Below, piece by piece: positions 3,972-50,510 of a stretch of DNA of 64,000 nucleotides (positions are counted from its first letter, which is position 1; the number at the start of each line of letters is the position of its first letter). Both the position numbers and the translations under genes were made by a program. The notes below the pieces were generated by a model that was not told the DNA's origin, ran no database searches, and saw only the letters and a list, made by a program, of their open reading frames with translations. Source of the DNA: Metaphire vulgaris (Eukaryota; Annelida; Clitellata; Crassiclitellata; Megascolecidae); the NCBI GenBank assembly GCA_018105865.1, contig CM030848.1:2817001-2881000 (forward strand), given 5' to 3'.

Positions 3972-4221
3972 GGGTTGCCAATGCTTTAGACAAAGGACAG
4001 TATACCTCTGAGTCCTTGTCCTTTATCGCTAGGACTGGTTAGTCCTTTATTTCAAAAACAATGCATGAAACCACACATTTCAATTGAAATTTTCTTTTTT
4101 GATTGTCACCCCATTTCAGAAGGGAGATGACCTTTTGCTTGTCACTGCACTTGTTGCCATTGATTGTATGTGACACCAAGGTTTCTTGGATAGTCCTTTA
4201 TTGCAATTTGGCTGGCAACCC
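3972..4221. mobile_element. MITE with GGGTTGCCA ends and TA target sites
   Basis: 250 bp bounded by GGGTTGCCA...TGGCAACCC inverted ends. Inner parts also match as inverted copies (AAAGGAC / GTCCTTTAT). TA flanks both sides (3970-3971, 4222-4223), as for Tc1/mariner-type insertions. It contains one copy of the GATGACC-T-GCTTGTCA motif at 4127-4145. Confidence 0.7.
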
Positions 4222-4982
4222 TAATTAACTGTATTTAGACTAGAACTAATACCAGAGGACTATTTTATTGCATCATTTATTACTGGTATTAGACCTTTTA
4301 AGAAATGAATGTATTGAAATTTTAGAAGAAAAACCACAGACAAGATCTTGAGAGGAAATCCTCAGATGTTAGTTTTGAAATTGAGAATGTTCTTGAAGCA
4401 TTCAGTTTTCTCAATTCCGAAGACTGTGTTGGGGCGCCAAACAAGAGACGGTACAATTGGGTTGATTGTTTTTGATTTCCTAAGAATAATTTTATAAATT
4501 AGCTTTACACAGTGAAATGCAACTGTCTGTTTGTACATTGTATGTTTATTTTAAAAGGCTGTTGTAAATGTTATTTAGGCTAAAATAACCTACAGACTTT
4601 TGACTACTGAAACATAAGTGGAGCTTATGGGTGGCTTGTCGATATCACAGATTTCTTTTTGCAATAAATTTCGATAGAAAACAGTTTCAAATGTCATTTT
4701 GCACACGACACATCTGCATCATGTGATATCTAAAAACAGAAATTTTAGTTCAGTCTACGCAAGATTTGTTTTGTAATATAATGTGACAGAACTGATGTGA
4801 TGTAGTGGTGGGGAATTTCGAATACTGAGATGGCCACAGTTTTTGGAGATGCCATGATATAGTGGTATTGGTGTTTGCCTTGTGGCTGTAGGGCTGTTGA
4901 CTTGAATCTGATCCTGTCCATTGCAGTCAAGTCAATAAATTTCCATGGTGTCACTATAATGGTGGTGGTGAGTTTATCTGTA

Positions 4983-5012
4983 TGTGTGTGTGTGTGTGTG
5001 TGTGGTGTGTGT
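4983..5012. repeat. (GT)n microsatellite
   Basis: A TGTGTG run of about 30 bp with one interruption. A related CA/CG-rich run follows at 5074-5096. Confidence 0.9.
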
Positions 5013-5654
5013 ATGTATGTCTGTATATGATTGCACTCTTAGCAAATAATCACTTGATGCTCTGAGCACGTGCATACACACACACGCGCGCACACAGTGT
5101 TTTACTTCTCCTATGCTCTGTTGTTAACCAGTTCTAGGTTTCAAGATTTGCATTCAGTGTATTTTCAAAAGAAAATTTTAATAGCTGTTGCCAGAGGCTT
5201 TTCTTGATGCCAGCCCTACAAATTTTCTCAATTGCTGATGATTTCTAGGCCATAATGCAAACTGTGGAGGTCTGTTAGTTAAGAAGGTGCTTACCCTGCA
5301 TAAAACGCCAACTCATGAATATTCATAAATCATATGTGTCGTACGTAGGTCAAGGTCAAATTAAGGAGTCAGAGGGTGGTTTAGTTGAACTGAAAATGTA
5401 TGTGGTAAGCTAAGTCAGGTGATCAGTTGGTCATAATCAGCTGATTAAAGACATGATATTAATGAGTTTCCACTGAATAGACAAGCTAGACAAGATTAGA
5501 ATAGTCATGTTTTCATGGTAACATGAAAGATTGATGTACAGCATGAAGACATTGATCAATTCCTGGTAAAGTTTCCCATCCTTTGATTATTCAGTGACTG
5601 TAATCAGATTTCCAGTGCATTATGTTGTGGTAGAAATGGAAATATGATAATTAC

Positions 5655-6182
5655 CAGTGATGGGCAACTAACTAAAAAACATTATTAAACTATAACTAAA
5701 TTTAAACTAAAAATAAGTAGTTAAACTTTTAGTTGCAAACTAACTCTCTAAAATAGTTAACTAAACTAAAAAATATAGTTAAACATTTTGCAACTAATTT
5801 TACAACTATTTCCCAGGTATCAGGTATGATTGATGTGTTCATGAAATTTAGGTGATGCTTGCAACATTAACATGTCAATGAACCATTGAAATCATTAATC
5901 ATTGTCTATATAATATTTAAGTCTTAGTTTGGACTGCAGGAACGCAAGTTTGTCAAGTTTGTTTGGAAAAAATGAAACAGAAAGAAATAGATAAAAAAGG
6001 TACTGTTATTGAGAATTTGGGATAAAAAGTTTTAGTTAAACTATTTAGTTATTAACTAAAATTTTTCAGTTAAACTATCATTTTAACTAAACTATTTATA
6101 TTTAATTAAACTATGAAGATAACTAAAAAATTAGTTAAACTTTTAGTTAGTAACTAATTAGTTAACTAGTTGCCCATCACTG
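5655..6182. mobile_element. hAT-type MITE, 528 bp, 8-bp target duplication
   Basis: Ends CAGTGATGGGCAACTA...TAGTTGCCCATCACTG are a perfect inverted pair of at least 16 bp. The flanks carry a perfect 8-bp duplication, ATAATTAC (5647-5654 and 6183-6190), diagnostic of hAT-superfamily transposition. The interior is dominated by TTAGTTAAACT-like runs in both orientations and has no coding capacity. A second copy is at 36849-39222. Confidence 0.92.
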
Positions 6183-6567
6183 ATAATTACTGTATGACCA
6201 GGGAAGATCATTTGAATATAACTTGATTACCTAATATGATGGATGATTGATTGATTTATTGATGTCAATTTGTTAGTATCATATCAGGACCAAAGAATGA
6301 TGAGATTGCAATATTTATACAATGATAACAGAAACATAAGTCACTGAGTGTTTGGTTGGAAATCAATATTAGCAAGAGATAAATTCTCTGCAATAAATCC
6401 ATCTTCTAAATGTAATAACATTAAGATTAGCATAATTGTGTTATTCTAAATATCACAGTTATTTATAAATCTAAAAGCTGCATTTAATTGAGTAGCAATG
6501 TGATTGTGTTGGTGGTTGACAGAGAAAAACTGCCGATTTAAATGGAACTTGTTACTCTTATAGACAG

Positions 6568-6792
6568 AGTCATCCTGGAAGCCATCTTGATATCTTGGGT
6601 GACAGCTGCGATCAGAGTTTAGAGTTGACCACCAAGACCACAGACTCTGGAATCGAGTCTATAGTTAATCACCTTGAAGAAGATGAAGTAGGATTCGACG
6701 TTTTGGCAAAGATGGAATTCCCGACAACAGGAAGCCGGCAGGTCGACGCAGCCCTCAACTGGCATTTGTCTTATTGTGCGTCGTTGCTGAAT
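6568..6792 (+). CDS. Coding exon of RIPOR/FAM65-like gene
   Basis: A 225-bp exon, phase 0 in and out, from acceptor CTTATAGACAG| to donor AAT|GTGAGT. It encodes SHPGSHLDILGDSCDQSLEL, TTDSGIESIVNHLEEDEVGF and then ...ALNWHLSYCASLLN. The L..HL.YC..LL pattern is what I recall from the start of the conserved C-terminal region of RIPOR proteins. Neighbouring exons join without frame change. Confidence 0.85.
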
Positions 6793-7334
6793 GTGAGTGG
6801 TTGAAAATTACGTTTTTTGTGACTGTTTATTAGATTTTTATATTGCTTTCTTGTGATTAGTTGTAGGGGAGTTAAGATTGTTGTTTCTGAAACATTTGAG
6901 GCCTGTTAGAATATTTTCTAAATGACTTTTTCAAATTTTTTTGATCACATGCAAGAACATTCATTCTAAGTTGTTTTTAGTAGGAAACTGCTTATGAGGA
7001 TAGAAAATTGTAGACCCTTCTCATATCAGTGGCTTTGCAGATGTTGGATGCAGTCAAATCCACTTGAGTCATTAATTCAAATTGTTCTGCAAAGGTGCAC
7101 TCAGCAAAAATATGTGCTACAAAATTATGTCACGAAGTGCACTTTTTTGAAGTGAAACCGTGAAGTTTAATGCATTTAGGCAAATCATTCATTTACTTTC
7201 AGCGCACTTGAGTGAGTTTTAGCATATTTACACAAAATTCATGAGCAGATATATTTTGTGAAAGTTCACTGGGAAGTTGAATTTATGCTAGATTAACTTT
7301 TAATCGAGCGGCTCCAACACATATTTCATCCATG

Positions 7335-14062: not shown

Positions 14063-14495
14063 AGGGGGACTGTATATTAATTATGTCAACAATTTTTGAC
14101 CCCTTTCTCCTTGTCAGCAACTGTCCAACTTTCATTGCCCCCTATAATTATGTAATAAAACTTTTAACCCTCTCCCCATCCTCCCCAAGATCAGTGACAG
14201 GTCCCCGTAACAAGTGTAGAAGGTTATTATTTTTTGCAGTGATGACCTTTTTTTCTCATCAATTGTCAAGATGTGGTGATGATGACCTTTTTTGTCTTCA
14301 GGCATCAAAATGTTGTGATGACCATTCAGTTTTTTTGCTTGTCAGGCTTTTTTCTGTTGTAATAAATAGTATTCCATGAAATTTCCTATTTTTTATCATT
14401 TGTAAAAAATGAAATTGTTGACGTTAACTTCTCTTGACCCCCGTCCCCTGTCAATTGTTGATGTGATTTGTTGATGTAATTAATGGACAGCCCCT
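14063..14495. mobile_element. MITE (GGGG-CTGTCCATTAATTA ends) with three motif copies
   Basis: About 430 bp with imperfect terminal inverted repeats of about 28 bp: left GGGGGACTGTATATTAATTA, right rc GGGGCTGTCCATTAATTACA. The ends resemble those of 50149-50510. It carries the GATGACC-T-GCTTGTCA motif at 14241, 14281 and 14316. A target duplication was not resolved. Confidence 0.65.
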
Positions 14496-14743: not shown

Positions 14744-15125
14744 CAGAGGCGTAGCGTGCCAATGGCTAGTATGGCTCTAGCCATGGGTGGCACACAACTG
14801 GGGGGCGGCAAATTTTGGAAGGACGACCTTTTTTCTTTTTTGCTTGTCATCAGTGTATGTTAAGAGGGCAGAAAATTTCAAATGAGTGGCAAATTTTAGA
14901 AGCGATGGCCTTTTTTGCTTGTCAGAGGATATTTTTAGTGAAGGCAGCAAGCTTTAGGAGGGGCGGCAAATTTAAAATTTGGAAATTTTGCAAGTGGCAT
15001 GGGCGGCATGAGTGCACGCTATGCCTCTGGCACCAAAGACCCTAGAGCTGCATCTGATATGAATGAATTTGGGGCGGCGGATTAGCCATGAGCCATAGGC
15101 AGCCAAAGTGCATTCTACGCCACTG
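14744..15125. mobile_element. hAT-type MITE (CAGTGGCGTA family), 382 bp
   Basis: Ends CAGAGGCGTAGCGTGCC and GTGCATTCTACGCCACTG form an imperfect inverted repeat. A perfect 8-bp target duplication, GCTGCCAG, flanks it (14736-14743, 15126-15133). The interior has repeated GGGGCGGCAAATTT-like segments and two copies of the GATGACC-T-GCTTGTCA motif (14820, 14903). Confidence 0.92.
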
Positions 15126-23375: not shown

Positions 23376-25193
23376 AATCGTTCTGTTAGATTTAGTGACA
23401 TGCGCCAGAGAAATTCCATATCCATATAGCTTTTGTGCAAACCTCTAGTGGCTTAAACAATCATGTTGAGTTTGATCAAGTTTAATTATCACTGCAACCA
23501 TAGGCGTAAACTACTATTAGTCTTCTAGGCTCGGGCCTCCTAGTTTTTGAGAAGGGGTGGATATATAGAGGTTCCCCGCATTTTCTTCCAAGGTCACACC
23601 GGTTATTGAACTTATTTCTGCTCTTAGCAAGTTGTAACTGTCCGTCAGACTCCTTGCTTAACGATACGATTTACGCTATCAGTTATGCGTTATCTTCGAA
23701 ATGTCGTCAACTAAAGTTACTAAACTATAACTGCAAGAGAGAGGGGATTTGATAGAAAAATACAAAATAATGACTGAGAAAGTAGATGTGCCATACGATC
23801 GGTTCTTTACATTGGCACACTATAGTTGCACAAGAGGCCACAAGTGCAAATTGTTTAAGCAGAGGGTTGGTCCAAGAAATAAATTTTTTTTAGTGCAAGG
23901 GTGGTGGACAAATGGAACAGTTTGGACGAGGTGGGAGTGACAGTTGAAACAGTAAACGGATTCAAAGGCTATCTCGATAAACTAGGTTATTGAATGCAGA
24001 TGGTTACATCAGTGGTTTTCACACATGCTTACTTAGCCTCCTAAACCACTTAAAATCACATTATTATTATATTATTAATATTATACTATTTTTAAATTGA
24101 TCAGGTTGAAGTGATTGTTAGTAATCGGTATGCTAAATTTCTGGATAGTTTGTATGGTCAGTCTGTGTTTGAGAATATTAGAGACATTGAATATGTGTGT
24201 AATTTTTGCAAAACATGTAAGCCATTCGACTAAGTAAAGTTTTGTCTTTTCCTTAGGTCTAAGTTGTCTCTTTGCATCTTTGCATTGTGTTGTATTAGTC
24301 TTCTTGCTTATCTCCTTTGTTTTCTTGTTTTCGTTTGGTTTTGTGTTGGTAATTAATTGTCTTTTTAGCTGCAGTTAATGCGAAAATAAAGATATATATA
24401 TATATATATAATTCGTTAAAGACTGCTAACGAGCAACGCAAGCACCAAAAACAGTCCGTAAGTAGATCTAACGACGTAATCTTCCACAGAAGCCATACGA
24501 AGAGACACAGAACCACTCTGGGGATCGCACAGTTGACGTTCGTATTCGTAAAGGACGGCCCCTAGCGGCCATTCTGCACAAAACAGGTCAACAGACCGTG
24601 AAAGTTTCAGTCTAAACGTGTTATTGTCGTTTTAAAAGAATTAAGGTTAAAACATGAATTCACGCATACCCTCTTTTACGACCTATTGATACAAAATGCT
24701 AGAAGCGTTATGTAAGCTCAGCAGTGTCAATAAATGTCCATGCAGAATCTGTTCTGTTGACGACGCCGCCGCTGCTGTTGCTGACGACGACGATGGAAGT
24801 GAGAAGTCAGCACAAGACACATTTGGGAATATTATCAGTGGCGGATTGACATTTTTAGCAGAGATATGTTTACACCCCCTAACACCCAAACACCCACCTC
24901 CCAATTTGAGGTCGACACCCCCCCAAAAAAAGGTAATGTGACAATGGCATGCATACAAAATGCATACTAATTAGCTCCGGACACCTCCTCCCAGTTTGAG
25001 GTCGACACCCCCCCAATTCACAATCCTAGAAATATCCCCGTTTTTTAGGCGCCCGGTACACGTATTTCCATGGAAGCCAGCCGGATAATAATTCTGTAAA
25101 CCAATAGTCTACATAGTGTCGATGAGACTTTAGATTTTTCAACATCCCGGAAACATTCAGAAAAGTTACAGATTTAGAGATCAAGTGTGAAAA
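23376..25193. other. Region 3' of NTPDase gene A, no gene recognised
   Basis: The last exon of NTPDase gene A would be expected here or further left, but I could not find one. Short features only: a (TA)n run at 24391-24409, GACGACGCCGCC trinucleotide-rich sequence at 24758-24793, and two tandem CACCTCC-CAATTTGAGGTCGACACCCCCC copies (24895, 24985) probably from a miniature element. Confidence 0.4.
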
Positions 25194-25201
25194 AGTGGAG
25201 C

Positions 25202-25389
25202 CAGTGGCGTGTAGAGAGTGGCCGACGCCGGGGGCCAAGTTGTCCAAAGTACGCCCACGAGCAAAAAACGTCATCAGCCCCCAAAATGGTCTGACCAGCA
25301 AAAAAGGTCATCGGGTCAATTTTATTTTTACGCCCGCCCTGGTCTGCGCCCGGGGCCACCGCCCCACCCGCCCCCTCTACACGCTAATG
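25202..25389. mobile_element. hAT-type MITE (CAGTGGCGTG family), 188 bp
   Basis: Ends CAGTGGCGTGTAGAG...CTCTACACGCTAATG, flanked by a perfect 8-bp duplication AGTGGAGC (25194-25201, 25390-25397). Two inverted copies of the GATGACC-T-GCTTGTCA motif lie inside (about 25260 and 25291), and a direct copy follows just outside at 25396. Related to 34080-34191. Confidence 0.9.
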
Positions 25390-25688
25390 AGTGGAGCTGA
25401 CCTTATTTTGCTTGTCAAGCTTTTCAGAAAGTTCAGGTCGTTGTGACAAATATGGTTGCATGCACACGAATTTCTAAATATTTTAGACGAGAGTTTTATA
25501 TTCCGAAAATAAAGTTATTTAAAGAAAGAAATAATTCTTAAAATCATTTTTAAAATATTGTCAATAGAAAAGGTGGGCCTCTATATTTTAATCTTCCAGG
25601 TGGGGCCGGTACCGATGTACCATTTGACCCGTGGTAAATCCGCCACTGAATGTTATGAATATCATATAGACAGCGCATGTTGTCGTAC

Positions 25689-26339: not shown

Positions 26340-26742
26340 CATGGGCGTAAAACACGGGGGGCGGTGGGGGACGGTCCCCCCGAATAATTAGTTGGCGGGG
26401 GACAGAGTATCGATTATCCCCCAATGTTTTGGACTATATGATAACAAAATTTCTATCCTACCCCATGATGGTGTTATGATGTTGATGCCAGAATTACGCC
26501 AAATCCGCATTTTTTCATTTCGGATGACCTTTTTTGCTTGTCAGGGTATTTGGAGGGGGAAAATATAAAAATATCAAGAGGATGACCTTTTTTGTTTGTC
26601 AAGACGTATTTCATGGGCGATTTTAAGTCCCCACCATAATATGCAATGTTCCCCATAATGGAGGAGGATTTTTATATTTCTGGGGGTCAACTTTTGAAAA
26701 GTTATTCTATCCCCCAATGTTGACGCCAGGTTTACGCCACTG
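26340..26742. mobile_element. hAT-type MITE (GGCGTAAA family), 403 bp
   Basis: Ends CATGGGCGTAAAACACGG and CCAGGTTTACGCCACTG, flanked by ATAGAAAT (26332-26339) and ATAGTAAT (26743-26750), a 7/8 duplication. The interior has C- or G-homopolymers and two GATGACC-T-GCTTGTCA motifs (26523, 26581). It lies between exons 5 and 4 of NTPDase gene A. Confidence 0.88.
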
Positions 26743-27100: not shown

Positions 27101-27160
27101 GATTGATTGGTTGACTGATTGATTGGTTGATTGATTGATCGATCGATCGATTGATTAAAT
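27101..27160. repeat. (ATTG)n/(ATCG)n microsatellite
   Basis: Imperfect GATTGATTG tetranucleotide run with a GATCGATCGATC core. Confidence 0.85.
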
Positions 27161-27205: not shown

Positions 27206-27501
27206 CGTTCTACAAAAATCGTTGGCCAAAGTCTTTAAGTCGTGAAGGGCGAAACCTCCGTCTTCTTTCACGACCTTCATGCTCTCCAGAGAATGGAGAA
27301 AAGCGCCCATGACGATGAAGTCCGTGTTAGAGTGAATGGTTGGCTGGTAGGTAGTTCCTATGGCGCATGGTTTTGGATTGCATCGCCAAGTCTCGAGAGG
27401 CGTGTAAATCAGGCTGTCGAGCAGTTTCACACACTGCTCGGGATTCCCTTGACCGACGAATGTTATGCTTTTGCCATTAGTCGGAGAAGTGGCAGAATCG
27501 C
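27206..27501 (-). CDS. NTPDase gene A, fourth exon (cysteine-rich, IYQP region)
   Basis: 296 bp on the minus strand, acceptor ATCTTCAG| and donor GAACG|GTAAGA; phase 1 in, 0 out. It encodes GDSATSPTNGKSITFVGQGN, then PEQCVKLLDSLIYTPLETWR, CNPKPCAIGTTYQPTIHS and ...FIVMGAFLHSLESMKV. This corresponds to the GDA1/CD39 segment 'F.G.G....C..', with conserved disulphide cysteines and the (V/I)YQP box, before the C-terminal region. The gene B counterpart (52513-52808) has exactly the same length and phases. Confidence 0.9.
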
Positions 27502-27921
27502 CTGAAGATGGTACAACCGATCACCAAGGATTAACGGACACCAGGTTAGCAGATCACTTAGCCTAATGGACTAATTTCTACAGCGCCATTTCGATTATTA
27601 CGCGCTGAAAGCAGTCGATGGCCGCGATGAAAAAGACATGTGTTCATGTATCTCGATGTTAATTTCGATGTTATATTGGCTATAACTTATAGTATAAGGA
27701 CGCTTTAACTACTAATCAGCCAGTGAAGTCCGAAGGTAAAATAAAAACAAGAATGTACTGAAAAGGCATGTAGCTGCAATTCTAAAGATAGACGAAAAAC
27801 ATATTAAACAACAATTACGTTTGCAATCAATAAAAAGCCGTGGAACCATAAACATTTGCCACAATCTACAGTGTAGTATGCTTCTTAGCAGTGGACGTTT
27901 AACGGTCAGTATACGACTTAC

Positions 27922-28404: not shown

Positions 28405-28644
28405 CAGTGCGTCAGTGCTTCCCAACCTGTGTGCCGCGACACACAAGTGTGCCGCAGAAACTGTATGTGTGCCGCGGCAAAATGTTGGAAAAGTATTTTT
28501 TCTTAGACCTTTTTTGCTTGTCAGCTTCGGGAAAGGAAGAGATCGCGATCACAGATGAGTGTTTTTGCTTTTCGGCTACAGTGTGCCGTTGACTGTATGC
28601 TTCTTAGGTAGTGTGCCGTGGCTGGAAAAAGCTTGGAAGCACTG
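28405..28644. mobile_element. hAT-type MITE (CAGTGCTTCC family), 240 bp
   Basis: The left part reads CAGTGCGTCAGTGCTTCCCA and the right end GCTTGGAAGCACTG, with flanking CACCAAAG (28397-28404) and CACCAGAG (28645-28652), a 7/8 duplication. The interior has multiple GTGTGCCG(C/T)G units and one GACC-T-GCTTGTCA motif (28504). It lies in the intron between ACR3 and ACR4 exons. Confidence 0.82.
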
Positions 28645-28689: not shown

Positions 28690-29262
28690 CGCGCATGGGG
28701 CTTAATACGTATGAGGGGCCCTGGCGGGCGATGAAAAAATAGTTTGTTGCTTGATTTTCGATTTTTGATGCTCAAAAGTCTGACAAAAAAGGTCATCACC
28801 GCTTCTATGGTGCTTGATTTTTCATTTTGTCCTCCAAAAGCAAGATAAGCAAAAAAAATAAAAAGGTCATCACCGCATCACCGCTTTCTCATTTTGGTGC
28901 TACTTTTTTACTTTTTAACAAATGCCTAAATGCCCAAATGCGCACAAACTACTTCAAACGGCACTGCCATGGTTCCCTACTAATATACGCCCACAGAAAT
29001 TTTTCCAGGGTGACTGGAACACAATAGTCACAGTTAATGTTTTAGCAAGGTTATCAAATGCAAAATTTGACAATATTAAAAGATTCTCAGAATGCCGGGT
29101 AAAATCCAAACAAAATCAGGTACTGTTTTGCTTTAATTAAGCAGTATTTTACTTAGAAAATATTTGTCAACTGCCAATATATAGTTAGTTACAAAAATAT
29201 ATTTGCATTTTCAAAAGGAGGGGCAAGGGCCCCTCTTGATTCAATGCATGGACGCCCATGGT
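28690..29262. mobile_element. Probable miniature element with GGGGCCCT ends
   Basis: CATGGGGCTTAATACGTATG followed by AGGGGCCCTGGCGG at the left is echoed in inverted form by AGGGGCAAGGGCCCCT...GCATGGACGCCCATG at the right. It carries two inverted copies of the GATGACC-T-GCTTGTCA motif (28780, 28844). Exact ends and target duplication are not resolved. Confidence 0.45.
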
Positions 29263-29355: not shown

Positions 29356-30147
29356 AGGGCCGCCGAGAGAGGGGGCAGGGGGCAAATGCACAGGGGCCCG
29401 GCGGTCTGGAGGGAGCCCGGGCCAATGATGAATATGCATAATTAACAATAATACCAATAATAACACTAAAGCAAAAGGGCCCGGCGAGTAAAAGGGGGGC
29501 CCGGACCTGAGGACATCAAAAGCATCAAAAGGAACAGTGTGAACAGGGGCGTCATTTGGGGGAGAGGCAGGCGGGCCTCCCCCCAAGTAAAATGAAGAAA
29601 TAACGTATTAAATAGATAAATAAATGTGAAATGTGCAAAAAATCGCCAAAATTGTCCAAACATTTTAAAATTTGCCAAAATTGATCCCAAAATTGCTCAA
29701 AATTTGCCCATAATTGCTCAAAATTTGCCCATGATTGCTCAAAATTTGCCCATAATTGCTCAAAATTTGCCCATAATTGCTCAAAATTTGCCCATAATTG
29801 CTCAAAATTTGCCCATAATTGCTCAAAATTTGCCCATAATTGCTCAAAATTTGCCCATAATTGCTCAAAATTTGCCCATAATTTGCCAAAATTTGGCCAA
29901 ATTTGGTCAAAAATTATCTCGCCCCAAAGAAAAGTGTGAAATCACTGACGCTACTGAATGTGAAAAAGAGCGACAAGAAAAAAGGTCGTCACTAGTTTTA
30001 GAAAGTTGCAACATATGACATCGTGTCGGTTAATTTGAGTTAAACCAATGACAAGCAAAAAAAAGGGTCGTCAGCAATTTTTAAAATTTTTTCGGGGCCC
30101 GCCCGCCATTCTGCACAGGGGCCCGGAATTTCTCTCGGCGGGCCTGC
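29356..30147. mobile_element. Inverted-repeat element beside NTPDase exon 2
   Basis: About 790 bp with ends AGGGCCGCCGAGAGAG and CTCTCGGCGGGCCTGC and a perfect 8-bp flanking duplication ATTATATT (29348-29355, 30148-30155). It contains a 21-bp minisatellite (29690-29890), a nested-looking CAGGGGCGTCATTTGGGG segment (29544), and two inverted GATGACC-T-GCTTGTCA motifs (29972, 30050). It is inserted in the intron a few bases from the splice donor of the ACR3 exon. Confidence 0.85.
29690..29890. repeat. 21-bp minisatellite, about nine copies
   Basis: The unit AATTTGCCCATAATTGCTCAA is repeated head to tail with almost no divergence (TTGCCCAT recurs every 21 bp from 29704 to 29872). Because 21 is divisible by three, long repetitive ORFs appear on both strands; they are artefacts. 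Confidence 0.95.
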
Positions 30148-30159
30148 ATTATATTATAC

Positions 30160-30348
30160 CATTAGTAGTGAAGACTTTTGATAGGTAATTAGCGGCGATC
30201 CAGGCGAATATTCCCTCCTCTTCTCCCGAAAGAATTCTCGCGTTTTCCGACGATTTATACCGGTACGGATTGATCGTCGGGTCCGAGAGAAGTGAATCAA
30301 TATACCTCGTTGCATTGTTAGCCTTGTCCTCCAGTAGCATCCTCATTC
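30160..30348 (-). CDS. NTPDase gene A, second exon (ACR3)
   Basis: 189 bp, acceptor TTTGCTTAG| and donor AATG|GTATAA on the minus strand, phase 1 in and out. It begins GMRMLLEDKANNATRYIDSL, completing ATAG-MR from the upstream exon, and contains ARILSGEEEGIFAWIAANYL. This is ACR3 with the EEEG block holding the catalytic-base glutamate of the GDA1/CD39 family. The 5' boundary falls exactly at the family's ATAGMRLL box, so no exon seems to be missing between it and 35757. Confidence 0.93.
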
Positions 30349-31200
30349 CTAAGCAAACATTGTCCAACACGTGAATTGCAGAATAATTGCTGGGCCCCCT
30401 ATAGGCGGCAAGCGTTACAATTTACTCCCCAAAGCGAAGCCGACTGATTTGATATTCAGAATCGAGAAGGTGCATGCACAATTTTAGACAAATTGTGGGC
30501 TTTTGCAGCCAATTTTTTAGTTGCAAAATTAATGTTGTTATGTTGTCCGACATCCACATCTTCATTTTGTCAATCGTTGTTACCTTTCAGAAATGTCACG
30601 TGACTGAAATACTTTCTTTTCCCTTCTTGTCGTAACTCTTGAGCAACATTATAGCAACATTCATAGGACTATAGACCTACAATATGTTCTCACTGTTGCA
30701 ATAATTTCTACATTTCTATATGCTACAAGATATTGGTAGGTAAATAATCCAACAGTAAGGGAGTAAAAAATTCTACTTGTGGAACAAAAAAATGACTCGT
30801 ACCTTAATTTTTTGGCAAAAAAGTCATACAGGCCCTACTGCAGTACGATGCACTCAATTTCATGCTGATCTGTAAAACACTGACATTAGTCGTTTGCAGT
30901 ATTCGTCTGGCACTTTTATCAGGTTACGTCGTTTACTGATAGGGATCCTCTTAACTAGAGTAAATGACCTTGGAAAAATTGCCAAATTAAGCGCTTGCAT
31001 GCGCGGTCGATTGGCAAAATTAATGGCCTGTCCTCTTTCTTGCTGAAACTTCAAACGGCGCTTGTTCACACTCGGCGCCAAACACACACTTGATGATAGC
31101 AACACAAATAACTGAGTAAGGGTCTATTGAGGCACTGGACCATAAATCATTTCCTAGACCTAAATTCCAGAGATCTGAGGCGAATTACCAGACCGCATTG
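30349..31200. other. Intron of NTPDase gene A, nothing recognised
   Basis: The intron continues to the ACR1/2 exon. I see no element end or exon in this stretch. The 81-codon ORF at 30860-31105 (minus) has no recognisable features. Confidence 0.4.
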
Positions 31201-33249: not shown

Positions 33250-33688
33250 CAGACTTGGAACCGGGTCACATTTTGAGACCCGGCGACCCAGTGACCCGAA
33301 ATAAAAGTGACCCAGTGACCCAGTCATTGGTTCTAATATTTGAATCTTTATTAATGACTTCAAGTAAACGTTGTCATCACATCATATAATTTTTCATTAC
33401 ATTTTATAACATTCCATAGAGTAATAACACCAATATCCCTCAGTGATAAAATCAATTACCTGTATCTGTGGACCTAACTAATATCAAGCGGACGGTCTCT
33501 TCAGCCTTTCCGGGATTGATGAACCTGCATGCTTGGCATCTGGAGAAGATTTTAATTAATACCGGGTCTATGGCCGGGTCATAAAATGACCCGGAGACCC
33601 GGTGACCCGGTGGACAAAGGTGACCCGAATGACCCATTGACCCAGTGACCCAGTGACCCAGTGACCCAGTGACCCGGTTCCAAGTCTG
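33250..33688. mobile_element. hAT-type MITE built of GACCCAGT units
   Basis: Ends CAGACTTGGAACCGGGTCAC and GTGACCCGGTTCCAAGTCTG are perfectly inverted; perfect 8-bp duplication GTATCCGT (33242-33249, 33689-33696). Both subterminal regions consist of GACCCRGT octamers in tandem (at least eight near the right end), with a central unrelated segment of about 230 bp. Confidence 0.95.
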
Positions 33689-35745: not shown

Positions 35746-35756
35746 TCACGACTTAC

Positions 35757-36168
35757 CTGCCGTCGCCATAAAGAACATGGTAGATTTCGAATGCAATTTT
35801 TCAGGGACGTACTTTTTGGCAGCGTTGATTAGTTTCACAGCATGATCTTTAATTTCGGAATTCGACTGACACTCAGATACACCCGGTTTCGTACGCCAAC
35901 AGAGGACGTGTTTGAATTCTGGCAATACCAGACGACTTTCCACTTTCTTCCAACTGTAGACGTGAATTCTGCTGCCAGAACTCCCGGCATCGACAACGAT
36001 AGAGTAGCTAAGAAATTTCAATTGGTCGTCCGGGATAATCGGAGGAGGATCATTTCTACAGTCCGCGGAAACTTGAAAATTTCCATATGACCACAGCGTT
36101 GTAATTACTGTCACTGGAACATGCCACGTAAGTTTCATCGTCGTCGTCAGTCTATTGCAACAGCACAA
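35757..36168 (-). CDS. NTPDase gene A, first coding exon (signal, ACR1, ACR2)
   Basis: Minus-strand exon from ATG 36168 (or in-frame ATG 36138) to donor GCAG|GTAAGT; phase 1 out. Starting at the second Met, a hydrophobic stretch WHVPVTVITTLW could be a signal peptide or membrane anchor. ACR1 follows as SYSIVVDAGSSGSRIHVYSW, the phosphate-binding loop of GDA1/CD39 nucleotidases that hydrolyse extracellular or luminal NTPs and NDPs. ACR2 is STMFFMATAG at the exon end. The GSSGSR form is closer to intracellular or secreted NTPDases than to the GSSHT of classic CD39. The encoded exons total about 440 residues, so roughly 50 C-terminal residues are missing. Confidence 0.92.
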
Positions 36169-36189
36169 AATAACAACGCGGTTTGTATT

Positions 36190-36845
36190 GAGCTTTATAT
36201 CAACCAGCTGTTCTTGTAAGCTCAGTGGATGCTCGGCATAGAAGCACCGTGTGTCGTTCGTTTCAGTCTATACTGTATCTGCAGAGGAGGTTTGAGTACC
36301 ACTCGCAACACTGTTTTATTGCATATGCCCTTAACTAATTTGTTGTCATCGACCACAAGGTCTACTCTACAGTAGCGAATACTATGACACAGACTATGAA
36401 AACTGGGACGTGTGAATGGTTTGGTAAGCAAATAACTGGTATGTGTCAACACTCAACCAAGATTCACAATGTTCGTGCATATTTACTAGAACTCAGAATC
36501 AGTAGCTATCATGACTGGAAATTACTACAACCGCAGTTCAAAATTGTCACTAATTAAGCCCCACTGCCTTAGTCTATAAGAGGAGTCAGTGCATCATGAC
36601 ATAATGCATTTTAAGATTAAGTCCTACTTTAAAATGGCAGCTTTAGGCTCAATAAATGTAGAAATTTCAAAAAAGCAGGAAGCTTTGCACGTGGGTTTCA
36701 TCGGATGAAAAAGTCAAAAGATTGCGCCCCAATATTGCAGCACTGAAATCAATAGACCATAACTTGGCCAGCAATCGCTAAAAGATTAAAAATTAAAAAG
36801 TTAATACAACGGACAGCAGATCTGCAGGAACTAAGTGGATTATAG
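36190..36845. other. 5' flank of NTPDase gene A
   Basis: Sequence upstream of the first coding exon. No TATA box or CpG island stands out. It should hold the promoter and any non-coding first exon. Confidence 0.35.
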
Positions 36846-37660: not shown

Positions 37661-38942
37661 CAGTGTGGTTTCAGTTATTGATTATTTTTCAGTTACAGTT
37701 AAAGTTATTTAAATTATTTTCCAGTTATAGCTACAGTTAAAGTTATTGTCATTTTTCAGTTACAGCTTCAGTTTCAGTTACAGTTAATTATTTTTCAGTT
37801 AATCGCCATTGAATACGTTAACGAAATTTTGATGCTTTTTCTTAAAGAGCAATAACTATTCTCTCTAATTTATTTAAAAATCTACTTATGCCTATATGTC
37901 CATATTTTCACATGCATGCAGAGATGGCCATGGGTCCATATATGGTTTTTAGAACCCAACCCAACCCACCCATCAAATCTTCAACCCAACCCAACCCACA
38001 ATAACTGCCTAATTTGCTGACCCGACCCAAACCAATCCATAGACGTAAGAAGCGTGATTGACATACACGAGTAATGCCATCGGTGAGTCCTAGAATATCG
38101 CGATTTAAGGATCTGTCCTTGCCCGTTTTATCACAGGAAACCAGAACATACATTAATAGCATTGTCAATAAATTATCTCGGCGGTTTCGAGTCTTGGCCG
38201 AACACATGGTACGTTTATCTGATCTTAGTTGTTAAGTAAGATATGTGTCAGGATGTCAGCAATGGCACAAGCACCCCTCGATCCCCGGTGCTGGGAGGCG
38301 GAGGTTCTTATGCAATTTAGGGTGTGTGCGGTGAATGGACTTTCTCCCCTCTAGACATAATCCCTCTAACATTACCCCCTCTGGTACACCCAATGAAAAG
38401 ACACCCCGGAAATAATTCCCCATTTGTTTTACTTAATAGGCTTTGACGAACCCTACCGGCGCTGTGATGAAAGAGAATTAGTGTCGCTATCACTATTGAA
38501 ATGTTCTCTATTGAAATCTTCGCTAAATCAAAATTGAAATCGTTTCTACTCACGTGTCTTTGAAGCTTTCGCCTATTCGTTCTAGTCAATACTCCTCGTG
38601 AATCTCCTATAAATCCGACGCTACGAAATTGGCTTTGGACACCTACCCAACCTATGGTCATCTCTGCATGCAGTTCCATCAAAACATGACAAATGATTTC
38701 GGAAGATCGAGAGTTTCAATGTGTTTAATGGAAGATCTTTTTATGTGGTGGTTGACTTTTTAAGTTTGTAATTTTTCAGTTATTTTAACTATTTCAGTTA
38801 TTTATTTTTTAGCTATAGTCACAGTTACAGTTATTGGTATTTTTCAGTTACAGTTACAGTTACACTTAACTGATTTATTATTTTTTTATTTTTTAGTTAA
38901 CTGATATTTCAGCTACAGTTACAGTTAACTTAAACCATACTG
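37661..38942. mobile_element. Nested hAT-type element, 1282 bp, 8-bp duplication
   Basis: Ends CAGTGTGGTTTCAGTTA and AACTTAAACCATACTG are inverted; perfect duplication CGGACTTT (37653-37660, 38943-38950). Subterminal regions are long runs of TTTTTCAGTTACAGTTA. The middle (37915-38700) is unrelated, with a CAACCC-rich patch and a 121-codon ORF of no known family. A truncated relative is at 20751. Confidence 0.92.
37955..38040. repeat. CCAACCCAAC-rich simple sequence
   Basis: About ten irregular AACCC/GACCC units on the plus strand. The spacing is irregular, unlike a telomeric array. Confidence 0.7.
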
Positions 38943-40261: not shown

Positions 40262-40328
40262 TACTTATAAGTAAGTAAGTAAGTAAGTAAAACGAAATTT
40301 CTATAGCGCTGTCCGAACGCTTGACCCC
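40262..40328 (-). mobile_element. LINE 3' terminus with (AAGT)n tail
   Basis: (AAGT)5 followed by TTTCTATAGCGCTGTCCGAA. On the minus strand this is GCGCTATAGAAAT plus (ACTT)n, the same end as the 17.6-19.0 kb LINE. Only the last ~60 bp survive. Confidence 0.75.
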
Positions 40329-40643
40329 TATGGCGTAGCCAGGATTTGCCGAGGGGGGATTTACTAGCGGCTAATACCAACTTCAACTTCAAGCAAAAAA
40401 GTCGTCACCTATTGTTTTGATTGATTGAGTTAGTTAGTTAGGCAATACAGATATATAGATAGAGCGAGCGGTCAGCACCTATACAACTATATTGATATAT
40501 TTCTTTGATACTTTTTTGCTACCTTAAATCCGATTTTGTAGCCCCTCCACTCACAGAATAAAAATTCGCAATAAAAATGTTTCTTTGACGGGCAACCAAG
40601 GAGGGGTTTAACCCCCAAAATCTTGGTCTTGGCTACACCACTG
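40329..40643. mobile_element. Probable MITE (GGCGTAGCCA family)
   Basis: Left CTATGGCGTAGCCAGGATTT, right CTTGGTCTTGGCTACACCAC TG; inverted ends of the CAGTGGCGTAGCC type. One inverted GATGACC-T-GCTTGTCA motif at 40390. The flanks match poorly (CTTGACCC/CTTAGCGC). Confidence 0.6.
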
Positions 40644-41290: not shown

Positions 41291-41690
41291 TAATTTTTGA
41301 AAGTTGAATATGAGTGATACCATTGATCTTCACGTTTTGATAATGTTTCTAATTTGGATAATATAGTGGTGAGTGAACTATAATGTCGATAAAATATGTG
41401 GTCAATGACGTCCAAGATGTCGACTTTGAGAGTTCCATCAAGGCCATCTATTGCCCAATACAGCGATAACGCTCGTATTCGTAGATCAAGGCACCTATGG
41501 ACCACTCTATGCAAAGAAATCAACAGATTGAAACTATCAGTAGGTGAAGAAATAAGCTAATTAATTTTTAGTGAAACATTTCAGAAGGAAGATAACATTA
41601 TTTTGCTTGTCAAGGCAATGCCAAGCTGAATTTCACTTTACTATTCACTGAATGAAATAATATATTAGAAGCATTTGTTAATATAACAGC
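41291..41690. other. Intergenic, one isolated motif copy
   Basis: No gene. A GATAACATTA-T-GCTTGTCAAGG motif variant lies at 41591-41615, just outside the MITE at 41700. Confidence 0.4.
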
Positions 41691-41699
41691 ATTGATATT

Positions 41700-42070
41700 C
41701 AGTGTTTATTCTAGGCCTTCTCTGTGGGAAATTTGCCCCCAAAGTTTTAAAATTCCCCCCAACATTTTTTATATGTTGGCTGGGGATGGAAATTTCCCTC
41801 TAAAAGTGTGACGAGGGAGGCTTTTTGTTTTTTAGAGAGGGGAAAATATAAGGATGACAATTATTTTGCTTGTCAGGGCATTTGAGAAGGGGTAAAAATA
41901 TTAGAAAGGATGGAAGGAATCAGAAGGATGACCTTTCTTCGCTTGTCACCACATTTCAGAAGGAAGATAACATTATTTTGCTTGTCAAGGTTTTTGGGGA
42001 CTCAGACCTTGTCCCCCTCCCCCCAACATTTCTAAATCCCCCAAAGTCATGGTGACTAGAATAAACACTG
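41700..42070. mobile_element. MITE (CAGTGTTTATTCTAG ends), 371 bp
   Basis: Inverted ends CAGTGTTTATTCTAGGCC / GACTAGAATAAACACTG. Flanks share ATTGATATT (41691-41699, 42071-42079), an 8-9 bp duplication. The interior holds three copies of the GATGACC-T-GCTTGTCA motif (41853, 41927, 41966) spaced by CATTTGAGAAGGGG-like segments. Confidence 0.9.
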
Positions 42071-42451
42071 ATTGATATTATTGTAGCAAAGGATTGATAG
42101 GATTATAATGACCAGGAAGTGTGTTAGACGGTAGCAACAATCTATCAAAAACTTCACACCTTTGAATTGTGCTAGTCGCTTGGTGATGGCAGCGCACACC
42201 CATTAGTGACATACGTAATTTAAATGCTCTAATACAGAGATCTACATGGACAGAGACGCGTGGAAAGGCTATTTCGCAGACAGACCACAAGTCTAACTGC
42301 ATCGGGGTACATGGTACAAAGTACAAGGTACAAATACAGATCCTAGACCAGAGGCTAGGATCCAGTGGGGCTAACTCAAATTGTTTGTGTAGCGGTCAGG
42401 AAATTTGTTCTGAGACACGACTGCAGTACGGTTCAACCAAAAGGTTTGAGT

Positions 42452-44262: not shown

Positions 44263-44307
<45 letters not shown>
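44263..44307. repeat. (TA)n microsatellite
   Basis: About 22 TA units directly abutting the MITE at 44308. Confidence 0.95.
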
Positions 44308-44310
<3 letters not shown>

Positions 44311-44582
44311 TGTAGCAAGGGAGCAGTGGGGGCGAACCGCCCCGGGCAAGCACTTGCTCTAGAGGCAGCATTTTCGAGATTTTTTAAATTTAATTTTTCA
44401 CTTTTATGATGCGATAAGGTTTTTTCTTTTTTGCTTGCCAGGAATTTTTGGGGAGTCAATAACGTTTTTTTTGCTTGTCAAGAATTTAGAACTTTTTTCT
44501 TGTCACTTATTTTGGTTGCCATATTTTTTGGAAGCGGCACTTTTTTTCGCCCCGGGCGGCACTTTGCCTCGCTACGCCACTG
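44308..44582. mobile_element. MITE (CAGTGGCGTAGC family) inserted in (TA)n
   Basis: Left TTGGTGTAGCAAGGGAGC...CCGCCCCGGGC; right GCCCCGGGCGGC...GCCTCGCTACGCCACTG. Flanks are TATATATA on both sides, so the duplication is uninformative. It contains two or three GATGACC-T-GCTTGTCA variants (44413, 44461, about 44496). Confidence 0.75.
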
Positions 44583-45371: not shown

Positions 45372-45373
<2 letters not shown>

Positions 45374-48720: not shown

Positions 48721-48841
48721 GTGCAGACACCCGTTCATCTGAAATCGACAATATTGACAACGACTTCTGGGCAGGCGCAATAGAGTACTAAGCAATTTGC
48801 TCAGTACTCTATTGATTTCAGATGATCTGGTGTCTGCACTC
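48720..48841. repeat. Long imperfect hairpin
   Basis: Outer arms GAGTGCAGACACCCGTTCAT CTGAAATC and GATTTCAGATGATCTGGTGTCTGCACTC. Inner arms CAATAGAGTACTAAGCAA / TTGCTCAGTACTCTATTG. The left arm carries about 40 extra bases. Probably a foldback element. Confidence 0.8.
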
Positions 48842-49044
48842 AGGGCCATTTTAAGGCGGGGGCTGAGGGGGCTGTAACCCCCCGGCCCATCATGAAAATA
48901 GGCCCACAGATTTTCAAGATAACCTTTTTTGCTTGCCAGCACGATTTGGAAGGGATATAACCTTTTTTTGCTTGTCAGAGATTTTCAGATAGGCGACGGC
49001 CTTTTTTTTCTCATCCCCCGGCCCACTCGGACCTTAATCCGGCC
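48842..49044. mobile_element. MITE (CAGGGCC ends) abutting the hairpin
   Basis: Inverted ends AGGGCCATTTTAAGG / CCTTAATCCGGCC, flanked by CTGCACTC (48834-48841, 49045-49052), a perfect 8-bp duplication. Three GATGACC-T-GCTTGTCA variants lie inside (48919, 48955, 48993). Confidence 0.85.
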
Positions 49045-49052
49045 CTGCACTC

Positions 49053-49689
49053 TTCACGTAGAAATTTTAGTTATCTTTCTTTGCGTTCTTTCTTTCGCTT
49101 CCTCTTAGCTTTACATGCTAATGCTTTTGTTCCTGGACCATCTATGCAACCAATATTTCCTCGTCCTTCTTTGATCACTAAGAAATTCTAGTTCTTCCAC
49201 GGGCACTTTCTTATCTTTGGCATTTTAAAAATGTTTCATCAGAACATTTATAACTTGCAAAAGCTCTGGTAGGCGGCAAAAGATATTAAGTCTCAGAGGT
49301 CATATTTTGCATATAAGTTATTTAGTGTCATACACAACTTTTGATAACTAGTGCTTTTGAGAATTGAAGAACAAAAAATTTTCACTCCACCCTAATGACC
49401 ACACGCCCAATCAACCTCGATCATCAGCAACTGTGAGCTCAAATTGTTTATTGAATTTGTTACATTTTGTTAACTGTTTTGTTCTATTTTACAAAGAAAC
49501 CGCAAATAATATTAATTTGAATGATCGTAAAAGCCAAAACGAACATTAAAAAACGACACCGTGATGTTGTTCATTCTAACTTTTGTATTGGGTAAGAGGC
49601 CAAAATAGAGACAATCTCTCGTTGAAACTACGAGACTTAACCGGGTACTACAGTAGACTGGCAACTTCAGAAACTATTGCCGTATCCTT
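49053..49689. other. Intergenic, nothing recognised
   Basis: AT-rich, no exon or element ends identified. The last exon of NTPDase gene B would be expected somewhere between here and 36.2 kb, but no W-x-L-G coding segment was found. Confidence 0.4.
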
Positions 49690-49931
49690 ACTGCATCCTT
49701 ACTGTTAGCAGGACAACTTATATGACGTCTAGGAAACCTGTGCCCGCAACCTGGCCGTTGCTGGCCCGGTTGTTTGGAACAGTCTGCCAGCAACATTGCG
49801 TCCCTCTGCCTCAACCATGACGCTGTTATCTTTTAGGAAACAACTGAAGACATTCTTGTTTGATTGATCCAGTTCGCAACTGACATGAGCGCATTTGCTG
49901 CTTTGCGATTATTTGAGCTATAGAAATGTTC

Positions 49932-50009
<78 letters not shown>

Positions 50010-50010
50010 G
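49690..50010 (+). mobile_element. LINE 3' end with long (AAT)n tail
   Basis: Encodes RNLAVAGPVVWNSLPATLRP-like residues and FRKQLKTFLFD, then UTR ending GAGCTATAGAAATGTTCG and (AAT)25 (49933-50010). A clean example of the 3'-box plus microsatellite arrangement. Confidence 0.9.
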
Positions 50011-50148
50011 GCATAACGAAAGTCAAAGTCTAGCGTAGCCTACATTAACAAATGTCACTTGAATGAAGTGCTTTATAAGTGAGTTCTCATATTCTCCCGG
50101 AATGAGGTAATCGAGTATGATGTGTTGACGTTCAACTTCTCAGGCAAT

Positions 50149-50510
50149 GGGGTCATCCACAAATGACGTAACGCGCTTAGAGGTGTCCGGACATTTGCTA
50201 CGAAGTGTGACGAGGGGGGTTCCGTAAATGTGACGTAACGCAATACAAAATTTTTAAGGTGATGACCTTTTTTGCTTGTCAGTATGCTTGGAGAGGGAAA
50301 AAGATAAGGATGACTTTTTTGCTTGCCAGCATCTTCGGAGGGGGAAATGTAAAGATGGCCTTTTTGCTTGTCAAGACTTTTCGGAAAACGAAAAGGAGGG
50401 GTCGGCCCATTGTTGCGTCATATTTTAGGGGGTTGACTTTTTGTTACGTCGCGTTACGAAGGGGGGTCAGAAAGTGCCAAAATTGCGTTACGTCATTTAT
50501 GGACGACCCC
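50149..50510. mobile_element. MITE (GGGGTCGTCCATAAATGACG ends), 362 bp
   Basis: Terminal inverted repeats of about 26 bp: GGGGTCATCCACAAATGACG on the left and, reversed, GGGGTCGTCCATAAATGACG on the right. Three GATGACC-T-GCTTGTCA motifs (50261, 50309, 50354). No target duplication resolved. Confidence 0.85.

What the first reader, a model, noticed from the sequence alone, without database searches (positions are those of the whole stretch)
4127..50375. A ~20-bp motif, GATGACC-T(5-8)-GCTTGTCA, repeated about 29 times inside unrelated miniature elements
I find about 29 copies, on both strands, at roughly 4127, 14241, 14281, 14316, 14820, 14903, 25260, 25291, 25396, 26523, 26581, 28504, 28780, 28844, 29972, 30050, 40390, 41591, 41853, 41927, 41966, 44413, 44461, 48919, 48955, 48993, 50261, 50309 and 50354. 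All but one or two lie inside miniature elements, usually as two or three copies spaced by 35-60 bp of short, poorly conserved G/A-rich sequence. The host elements have different ends: CAGTGGCGTA, CAGTGCTTCC, CAGTGTTTATT, CAGGGCC, GGGGTCGTCC, GGGTTGCC and GGGCCGCC. Coding exons and LINEs lack it. A shared module in elements with different ends suggests a common subterminal binding site, a parasite-of-parasites module that spreads within MITEs, or repeated gene conversion. I know of no described system of this kind.
Basis: partly seen in the sequence, partly recalled or inferred. Interest (0 to 1): 0.88.

Follow-up and report, generated by a model that had tools for sequence, protein, structure and literature searches.

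The report
One motif inside many unrelated MITEs
A 20-letter DNA word is repeated in tandem inside many unrelated families of tiny jumping genes in one animal-like genome, which suggests a shared internal control site that short, gene-less jumping genes depend on.

Summary
All 29 listed places exist; 21 match with at most 2 mismatches, against 0.05 per shuffled window. The source is a 728-Mb genome with 10,770 exact copies (reversed control 0) and 1,915 exact head-to-tail pairs (control 0). In 20 stretches taken blind to the motif, all 10 clusters with a near-exact copy lie in MITEs (L024 on the weakest evidence). Hosts form at least ten families with different ends: most are hAT-like (8-bp target duplications), one, GGGGTCGTCCATAAATKACGTAAC, has 3-bp duplications. 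Copies in one element point the same way, 54-176 bp from the nearest end (22 elements). Similarity between families stops close to the motif and most spacers between copies are unrelated across families, which argues against one ancestral element; a few spacers are shared, so exchange also occurs. Five intact hAT loci, of other families, lack it. I favour an internal cis-site bound by a host factor, kept because elements carrying it multiply. The closest precedent is coral CMITEs. The mechanism is inferred, not shown.

The parts
3972..4222 (+). E1: MITE, ends TAGGGTTGCCA; own TSD not clear; sister copy L057 has TSD CTTGTGAT (8 bp; 10 bp if counted from AGGG)
4126..4144 (+). motif copy (exact); a degenerate copy lies just upstream (about 4094)
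14066..14494 (+). E2: MITE, ends GGG(G)CTGTCCATTAATTA type; sister L049; TSD class unresolved
14241..14344 (+). three motif copies in E2 (14241, 14281, 14317)
14744..15125 (+). E3: hAT-like MITE, ends CAGAGGCGTAGCGT/CAGTGGCGTAGAAT, TSD GCTGCCAG
14822..14924 (+). two motif copies in E3 (14822, 14904)
24836..25648 (.). E5: hAT-like MITE, ends CAGTGGCGGATT, TSD AATATTAT/AATGTTAT (7 of 8, by eye), split by E4
25203..25389 (-). E4: hAT-like MITE nested in E5, TSD AGTGGAGC (by eye)
25255..25312 (-). two motif copies in E4 (25255 with 4 mismatches, 25292)
25396..25417 (+). motif copy of E5, at the edge of the E4 insertion
26341..26742 (+). E6: hAT-like MITE, ends (CA)TGGGCGTAAA/CAGTGGCGTAAA; sister L053 (85% over 433 bp)
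26523..26601 (+). two motif copies in E6 (26523 exact, 26581)
28413..28644 (+). E7: hAT-like MITE, ends CAGTGCTTCC, no clear TSD
28503..28523 (+). motif copy in E7 (3 mismatches)
28713..29235 (-). E8: inverted-repeat element, ends GAGGGGCCCT, no clear TSD
28781..28871 (-). two motif copies in E8 (28781, 28843)
29356..30145 (-). E9: MITE of the CAGGSCCGCCGAGAGA family; sister L025 has TSD AGCATATG
29971..30072 (-). two motif copies in E9 (29971, 30049), GACGACC form
40328..40643 (-). E10: hAT-like MITE, ends (CA)TGGCGTAGCCAGGATTT/CAGTGGTGTAGCCAAGA
40387..40406 (-). degenerate motif copy in E10 (5 mismatches, chance level on its own)
41591..41612 (+). motif copy outside any recognised element; 40-bp exact duplicate of about 41950-41989
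41700..42070 (+). E11: hAT-like MITE, ends CAGTGTTTATTCTAG, flanking repeat ATTGATATT (9 of 9)
41853..41987 (+). three motif copies in E11 (41853, 41927, 41966)
44307..44581 (+). E12: hAT-like MITE, ends TTGGTGTAGCAAGG/CAGTGGCGTAGCGAGG, in a TA microsatellite
44413..44480 (+). two motif copies in E12 (44413 with 4 mismatches, 44458 with 3)
48841..49047 (+). E13: MITE, ends CAGGGCC, TSD unclear
48918..49015 (+). three motif copies in E13 (48918, 48956, 48995; the last with 5 mismatches)
50149..50510 (+). E14: MITE of the GGGGTCGTCCATAAATKACGTAAC family (Z); own flanks AAT/AAA do not match; sisters L012, L043, L033 have 3-bp TSDs TTA, TGT, ATA
50261..50373 (+). three motif copies in E14 (50261 exact, 50309, 50354)

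Best explanation
The motif (about 20 bp: GAYGACC, a T-rich run mostly of 5-9, GCTTGTCA) is an internal cis-acting site of non-autonomous DNA transposons. It is present as one to four head-to-tail copies inside MITEs, beyond the terminal ~50 bp. It most likely binds a host DNA-binding protein that helps these elements to be excised, copied or kept (for example by keeping the DNA open or bending it). Elements of any family that acquired the site multiplied better, so it is now shared by many hAT-like families and by a family with 3-bp target duplications. Copies within one element arise by local duplication, and arrays are sometimes exchanged between families. Shown: the distribution, the sharp conservation limits, the different hosts and the common orientation. 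Inferred: protein binding, selection between elements, and the host factor.
For: 10,770 exact copies, reversed control 0; 1,915 exact direct pairs, control 0. Strict TIR plus TSD ends: 8 of 10 clusters of the blind sample, 13 of 42 at loci chosen by an exact motif, 3 of 8 in the window, against 101 of 3,029 control positions, 3.3%; the other two blind clusters are placed by TIRs (L024) and family alignment (L028). Information content is 0.72-2.01 bits at the 15 box positions and at most 0.33 bit in the 45 bases before and 0.70 bit (at +7) in the 45 bases after. Cross-family BLAST hits over the motif begin at a median of 1 bp (IQR 0-3) before it and end 7 bp (IQR 1-10) after it. Cross-family spacer identity has the shuffled median, 0.54. 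71 printed pairs fall into 16 spacer classes, 11 with two or more members. Orientation is uniform in 32 of 33 multi-copy clusters; the mixed one is a nested insertion. Distance to the nearest end is 54-176 bp, median 80, in 22 elements. In the hAT element Hermes, sequence beyond bp 50 of the left end is needed in cells although the transposase sites there are not, 'some as-yet-unidentified feature' (PMC10368747, section 16 read).
Against: No protein or assay is known. The T-rich run varies from 4 to 14 in 86 copies, which a rigid complex would not tolerate well. Several MITE-like elements in the window lack the motif, so it is not essential to all. Some spacers are shared across families, which pure site selection does not predict (F7-E11 0.94; E11-E13 and E12-E4 0.76; Z-F2 0.74); a profile built on window spacers finds 44 hits outside the window whose spacer columns keep some information (hits chosen by the profile), and one spacer class holds 33 of the 71 printed pairs. 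Copies were recognised by the motif, so conservation inside it is partly ascertained, and families were defined by similarity outside it, so short cross-family hits are partly expected; the exact counts with reversed control, the spacer comparison and the strict-end test do not rest on that.
Confidence: 0.45

Rival explanations
1. Neutral recombination module: with some 10^4-10^5 copies the motif is a very common short homology inside MITEs, so gap repair after excision switches templates at the motif and hands units from one element to another. It spreads without any function.
For: F7 (TAGGGTTGCCAAC) and E11 (CAGTGTTTATTCTAG) share 54 bp at 88.9% covering two motifs and the spacer, although the two F7 copies are only 81% alike over 211 bp. 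Z and F2 share a two-motif core at 73-81%. Upstream flanks of copies in different elements score above shuffles on average (13.4 against 11.9). Family-F6 copies L028 and L048 have one motif while L038 has two with an extra spacer. Unit number varies within families.
Against: 152 of 156 cross-family spacer pairs do not exceed the shuffled 99.9% level. Conversion tracts should have scattered ends, but similarity stops near the motif. It does not explain how families with no prior homology acquired the motif.
Confidence: 0.27
2. Common descent: the core is a remnant of one ancestral element and only the ends have been replaced or have diverged.
For: Many host families share related ends (CAGTGGCG...), and a motif-plus-spacer core is alignable across Z, F2, F3 and E11.
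Against: TIRs differ strongly between other families and TSD length differs, 8 bp against 3 bp. Printed spacers fall into 16 classes. Five intact hAT loci, of other families, lack the motif.
Confidence: 0.13
3. Subterminal transposase-binding repeats of the hAT type (as in Ac, Tol2, Hermes).
For: Several repeated copies on one side, about 55-85 bp from one end in most of the 22 elements with accepted ends. Hermes BED domains bind its left end and not its right end (PMC10368747, passages).
Against: Not within 54 bp of an end in 22 elements; variable internal spacing; 20 bp rather than a 4-bp core with strict phasing. Families with different TIRs, and the 3-bp-TSD family, share it; 0 of 5 intact hAT loci have it inside the transposon, but none of the five is a proven partner of a host family.
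Confidence: 0.1
4. The motif is itself a tiny mobile unit, or the preferred insertion target of MITEs.
For: E4 inserted at the edge of E5's motif, and a hAT-like MITE (TSD TATAGGGG, by eye) inserted in the array spacer of L038. L039 and L046 differ by about one motif.
Against: No constant target duplication or ends around the motif were seen; flanks carry little information. The 10 near-exact clusters of the blind sample lie inside elements, not solo.
Confidence: 0.05

Closest known systems
CMITE families of Acropora corals (Wang et al. 2010, PMC2872659; abstract and passages seen)
   Same: MITEs with different TIRs share an internal region that is more conserved than the TIRs; its origin is unknown, and the authors suspect a role in transposition.
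   Different: CMITEs have TTAA duplications (piggyBac) and one 75-bp internal region; the 60-bp consensus in the passage seen lacks this motif. Here a 20-bp tandem motif crosses many hAT-like families and a 3-bp-TSD family, mostly with unrelated spacers.
Subterminal repeats of hAT transposons (Hermes, PMC10368747; passages and section 16 seen)
   Same: Short repeated sites, asymmetric between ends, in the region beyond the TIR.
   Different: [quoted passage not shown] here the motif is 20 bp, further inside, flexibly spaced and shared across families.
MITEs with transposition-enhancing internal sequence, such as mPing (name recalled; the passages of PMC2872659 mention such a study without the name)
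   Same: Internal sequence of a MITE promotes its own movement.
   Different: As recalled, it belongs to one family and is not a motif shared between families.
MITEs with internal tandem repeats (recalled; no paper read on these)
   Same: Short direct repeats with copy-number variation inside an inverted-repeat element.
   Different: Those repeats are, as recalled, specific to a family; here the unit motif is common to families while the spacer mostly is not.

Membership tests
MITE (non-autonomous DNA transposon) | short element with terminal inverted repeats and target-site duplication | tested here: met
   24 of 60 motif clusters have strict TIR plus TSD ends against 3.3% of controls (four of the 24 hits have doubtful or different ends); more by family alignment
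MITE (non-autonomous DNA transposon) | multi-copy families of short elements without coding sequence | tested here: met
   Z, Y, F2, F3, F5, F6, F7, F8, F10 with 2-8 loci each in the sample; 179-468 bp in 22 elements with accepted ends
hAT MITE (most hosts) | 8-bp TSD and YARNG-like ends | tested here: met
   e.g. L025, L027, L016, L038, L039, L046, L051, L065, L066; the rule itself is recalled
hAT MITE (family Z) | 8-bp TSD | tested here: not met
   3-bp matches TTA, TGT, ATA in L012, L043, L033; L017 and L054 unresolved, E14 unmatched
PIF/Harbinger-like (PHIS) for family Z | matching DDE transposase in an autonomous partner | not tested
   no search for such a transposase was run; PMC4482050 passages give only general TIR and TSD features
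Deletion derivatives of one autonomous element | all hosts share the ends of that element | tested here: not met
   different TIRs and TSD lengths
hAT subterminal transposase-binding repeats | present in the ends of autonomous hAT elements | tested here: inconclusive
   0 of 5 intact hAT loci (four kinds, L068 and L072 being alike), none a proven partner of a host family
CMITE | TTAA TSD and piggyBac CCYT ends | tested here: not met
   hosts with strict ends have 8-bp or 3-bp TSDs and CAG.../TAG.../GGG... ends

The most novel reading that the evidence does not exclude
A general MITE-amplification site: one host-recognised DNA motif that raises the mobility or survival of non-autonomous elements whatever transposase moves them, so that elements of different superfamilies have converged on, or captured, the same internal control sequence.
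Probability: 0.3. Interest if true: 0.87.

Novelty: new variant of a known kind. Interest (0 to 1): 0.66.

Why it matters
Why a few MITE families reach enormous copy numbers while their autonomous partners stay rare is an old open question. A single short motif retained inside many MITE families, in two TSD classes and by estimate tens of thousands of copies, makes that question testable: remove the motif from one element and measure mobility, or find the protein that binds it. If the motif turns out to be a neutral recombination relay instead, it is a clear natural case of internal modules passing between transposon families.

Tried and rejected
Chance or low complexity: rejected. RNA family: no Rfam match in the window at gathering thresholds. 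Known motif in print: letter searches listed only papers that by title concern other subjects (8 of 10 papers listed; 4 of 4); host-end letters likewise (22 listed). A search pairing gcttgtca with mite (1,200 papers, 20 listed) led to the coral CMITE paper; where its one gcttgtca stands was not shown to me. Searches for MITEs with a shared internal region, internal tandem repeats, amphioxus MITEs or sharing across superfamilies gave only that coral paper or, by title and abstract start, nothing closer (capped lists in 32 and 38). Occurrence elsewhere: 0 and 4 viral contigs and 5 prokaryote contigs match; near-exact copies there are single, taken as chance. Protein search with an ORF running through three copies: no relative. 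Reading F7 as a third superfamily from its 10-bp repeat: dropped, since an 8-bp TSD with TAGGG ends fits as well. Weaker tests: spanning inverted repeats of score >=11 around 31 of 49 clusters (7 of 10, 17 of 31, 7 of 8) against 21-26% of control positions; a lax TSD/TIR test hit 37 of 60 clusters but also 342 of 1,305 controls and was replaced by the strict one. Of the 24 strict hits, four are doubtful: window 29874-30500 and L032 2120-2637 disagree with the family reading, window 41697-42073 differs by 3 bp from the 9-bp-repeat ends, and L049 850-1283 has poor end symmetry, so family Y has no assigned TSD class. Spacer sharing as a general rule: it looked strong in best pairs but failed as a rule. 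Blind-sample copies whose best match has 2 mismatches were not placed in elements. L018, L031 and L054 contain withheld bases (5,000, 8,465 and 900 N). ORFs of the sampled loci gave no transposase (8 scanned). Not found: autonomous partners of motif-bearing families; inverted-pair control counts (not completed).

Full report
What was checked. The motif GATGACC-T(n)-GCTTGTCA was scanned as two boxes with a T-rich spacer. All 29 listed places exist; 21 have at most 2 mismatches, 25 at most 3, and the remaining four have 4 or 5, which is chance level singly. Twenty Markov-1 shuffles give means of 0.05, 1.25, 9.0 and 58.6 hits per window at exactly 2, 3, 4 and 5 mismatches, against 8, 4, 13 and 53. 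Copies exact over boxes and T-run number 3. The window is part of an animal-like genome (GDA1/CD39 exons and LINE reverse transcriptases); no tool names the species.

Genome-wide. The genome has 728.3 Mb in 246 contigs and the window is C17:2817001-2881000. The exact pattern GATGACCTTTN{0,6}GCTTGTCA occurs 5,447 + 5,323 = 10,770 times; the reversed pattern occurs 0 times. In 20 stretches of 10 kb, taken at one fixed position of contigs C1-C20 without regard to the motif (186.5 of 200 kb are not masked), there are 22 copies with at most 2 mismatches and none in the Markov control, where 2 have 3 mismatches against 16 observed. Extrapolated, that is roughly 85,000 copies in the genome, an estimate from a small clustered sample. 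The window is about three times denser than that sample.

Where it lies. Inverted repeats found without the motif contain 11 of 29 window copies (score >=13; 8.4% of the window) or 18 of 29 (score >=12; 15%), and no circular shift of 9,086 reached either count. With a strict criterion (8/8 TSD with at least 10/12 TIR, or 7/8 with at least 11/12, or 3/3 with at least 18/22), 8 of 10 clusters of the blind sample, 13 of 42 clusters in loci chosen by an exact motif, and 3 of 8 in the window have such ends, against 101 of 3,029 control positions, 3.3%. Clusters here are those with at least one copy of at most 1 mismatch. Four of the 24 hits are doubtful, as told under tried and rejected. The two blind-sample clusters without strict ends are L024, with TIRs CAGRGACGTCATTT and a 7-bp flanking repeat (an inverted repeat of that score spans about a quarter of control positions, so this is the weakest case), and L028, a member of family F6. 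With L032 placed by its family F8 (TSD CTTCAGAA), 10 of 10 lie in MITEs. Weak ends explain some misses elsewhere: F8 copy L013 has an 8/8 TSD but only 8 of 12 TIR matches.

Hosts. Alignments give families by ends: Z (GGGGTCGTCCATAAATKACGTAAC; L012, L017, L043, L054, L033, E14), Y (GGGCTGTCCATTAATTA; L049, L041, E2), F2 (E6, L053), F3 (CAGTGGCGTCGAGAG; L039, L046), F5 (CAGTGGCGTAGCC; L010, L033 twice, L042, L048, L055, L056, and E10 by its ends), F6 (CAGAGGCGTAGCGTCCC; L028, L038, L048, and less closely L047 and E3), F7 (TAGGGTTGCCAAC; L057, E1), F8 (CAGGGATATTT; L013, L016, L032, L040, L045), F10 (CAGGSCCGCCGAGAGA; L025, L033, L041, L052, E9). Further ends appear in L051 and L065 (CAGGGCCGGCCTTA), L027 and L061 (CAGTGGCGGTTCC), L024, E4, E7, E8, E11, E12 and E13. 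Many have 8-bp duplications and are hAT by that rule (recalled). Z has 3-bp matches in L012 (TTA), L043 (TGT) and L033 (ATA), with L017 and L054 unresolved and E14 unmatched (AAT/AAA), so it does not look like hAT.

What is conserved. Over the 29 window copies the 15 box positions carry 0.72-2.01 bits each; the 45 bases before carry at most 0.33 bit and the 45 bases after at most 0.70 bit, at +7, a T. Among 55 motif loci (54 after leaving out 41591), BLAST hits between families that cover the motif (430 hits, 148 family pairs, E <= 1e-3, low-complexity hits dropped; F5 was then still split in three) start at a median 1 bp before it (IQR 0-3) and end 7 bp after it (IQR 1-10). Because families were defined by similarity outside the motif, shortness is partly expected; that the hits stop so near it is not. 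Ninety hits in 37 pairs do not cover a recognised motif, many of them from families later merged or from overlapping or neighbouring loci. Spacers between successive copies (33 spacers, pairs of similar length only, mononucleotide shuffles): within-family identity median 0.73, between-family 0.54, shuffled 0.54; 4 of 156 between-family pairs and 14 of 28 within-family pairs pass the shuffled 99.9% level. The genome-wide pair search gave 1,915 exact head-to-tail pairs (control 0). The 71 printed spacers, all from contig C1, fall into 16 classes at a lenient cut, 11 with at least two members; the largest holds 33 of 71 and appears to mix Z and F2 types. So the same motif recurs in tandem with several unrelated spacers. 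This is the strongest single result, since a copied block would carry its spacer along.

Geometry. In 33 multi-copy clusters, 32 have all copies in one direction; the mixed one is the nested E4/E5. In 22 elements with accepted ends (24 strict hits less two rejected, two with ends adjusted by eye) the cluster is 54-176 bp (median 80) from the nearest end.

Evidence of exchange. F7 copy L057 and hAT-like element E11 share 54 bp at 88.9% covering two motifs and the spacer, while F7 copies L057 and E1 are 81% alike over 211 bp. Z and F2 share a two-motif core at 73-81%. A profile from window spacers finds 44 hits in the fetched loci with partly conserved spacer columns. L038 has a second motif with a spacer absent from its sisters L028 and L048. 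Exchange between arrays, or shared descent of some arrays, therefore happens; one search suggests it is not the rule.

Autonomous elements. The hAT dimerisation domain PF05699 has 150 scored matches of 3,124 candidates in the genome. Five loci with long open frames (592-635 aa; L068 and L072 alike, so four kinds) were read at 4.0-4.2 kb each: no copy with 3 or fewer mismatches lies inside an apparent transposon. L070 and L071 have one 4-mismatch hit each, chance level. L071 has two 2-mismatch copies about 680 bp beyond the reading frame, in what by eye is a separate MITE at 210-534 with TSD ATTATCAG. Clear TSD-bounded ends were found for two of the five (L069, L072). None is a proven partner of a host family, so those partners remain unseen.

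Interpretation. Selection on a short internal site explains the sharp limits, the unrelated spacers, the retention in different families and the distance from the ends. Neutral relay by recombination explains the shared spacers and unit-number changes. I favour the first with some of the second. [quoted passage not shown] The coral CMITEs (PMC2872659, abstract and passages) are the nearest precedent: shared internal region, different TIRs, but TTAA duplications throughout.

Limits. The motif defined the copies, so motif conservation is partly ascertained. DNA outside the window is 200 kb of blind sample, about 77 kb around exact sites (mostly contig C1) and about 21 kb around transposases. Most genome searches did not complete. 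Function is inferred.

Noticed in passing
window 25203-25417: A hAT-like MITE (E4, TSD AGTGGAGC) carrying two motif copies inserted at the very edge of a motif copy of another (E5); possibly a target preference.
   Followed up: partly
window 41573-41614: A 40-bp stretch identical to one at about 41950-41989 inside E11, about 375 bp away and outside any recognised element; looks like a recent local copy of one array unit.
   Followed up: partly
window 5648-6189, 33250-33688, 37913-38672: Inverted-repeat elements with hAT-like ends (CAGTGATGGGCAACTA; CAGACTTGGAACC with flanks GTATCCGT; CAGAGATGGCCATGG) that lack the motif. An intact hAT locus (L071, about position 849) shows a CAGTGATGGGTAA sequence that may be its end.
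   Followed up: partly
window 29690-29880: A tandem array of a 21-bp unit (CCCATAATTGCTCAAAATTTG) inside E9, absent from its sister copy L025.
   Followed up: no
window 27155-59626, minus strand: Open frames with parts of the GDA1/CD39 nucleotidase family at 27155-27520 (below the curated cut-off), 35746-36267, 52393-52812 and 59270-59626; two carry the same domain part, so perhaps two neighbouring gene copies (Pfam).
   Followed up: no
window 62886-63653: An open frame with a GDSL-type hydrolase domain.
   Followed up: no
L038 998-1423: A hAT-like MITE (CAGTGTTTAATCTAG end, TSD TATAGGGG by eye) nested in the motif array of another hAT-like MITE.
   Followed up: partly
L039 and L046: Two F3 copies that differ by a 20-bp gap close to exactly one motif copy, a possible precise gain or loss event.
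   Followed up: partly
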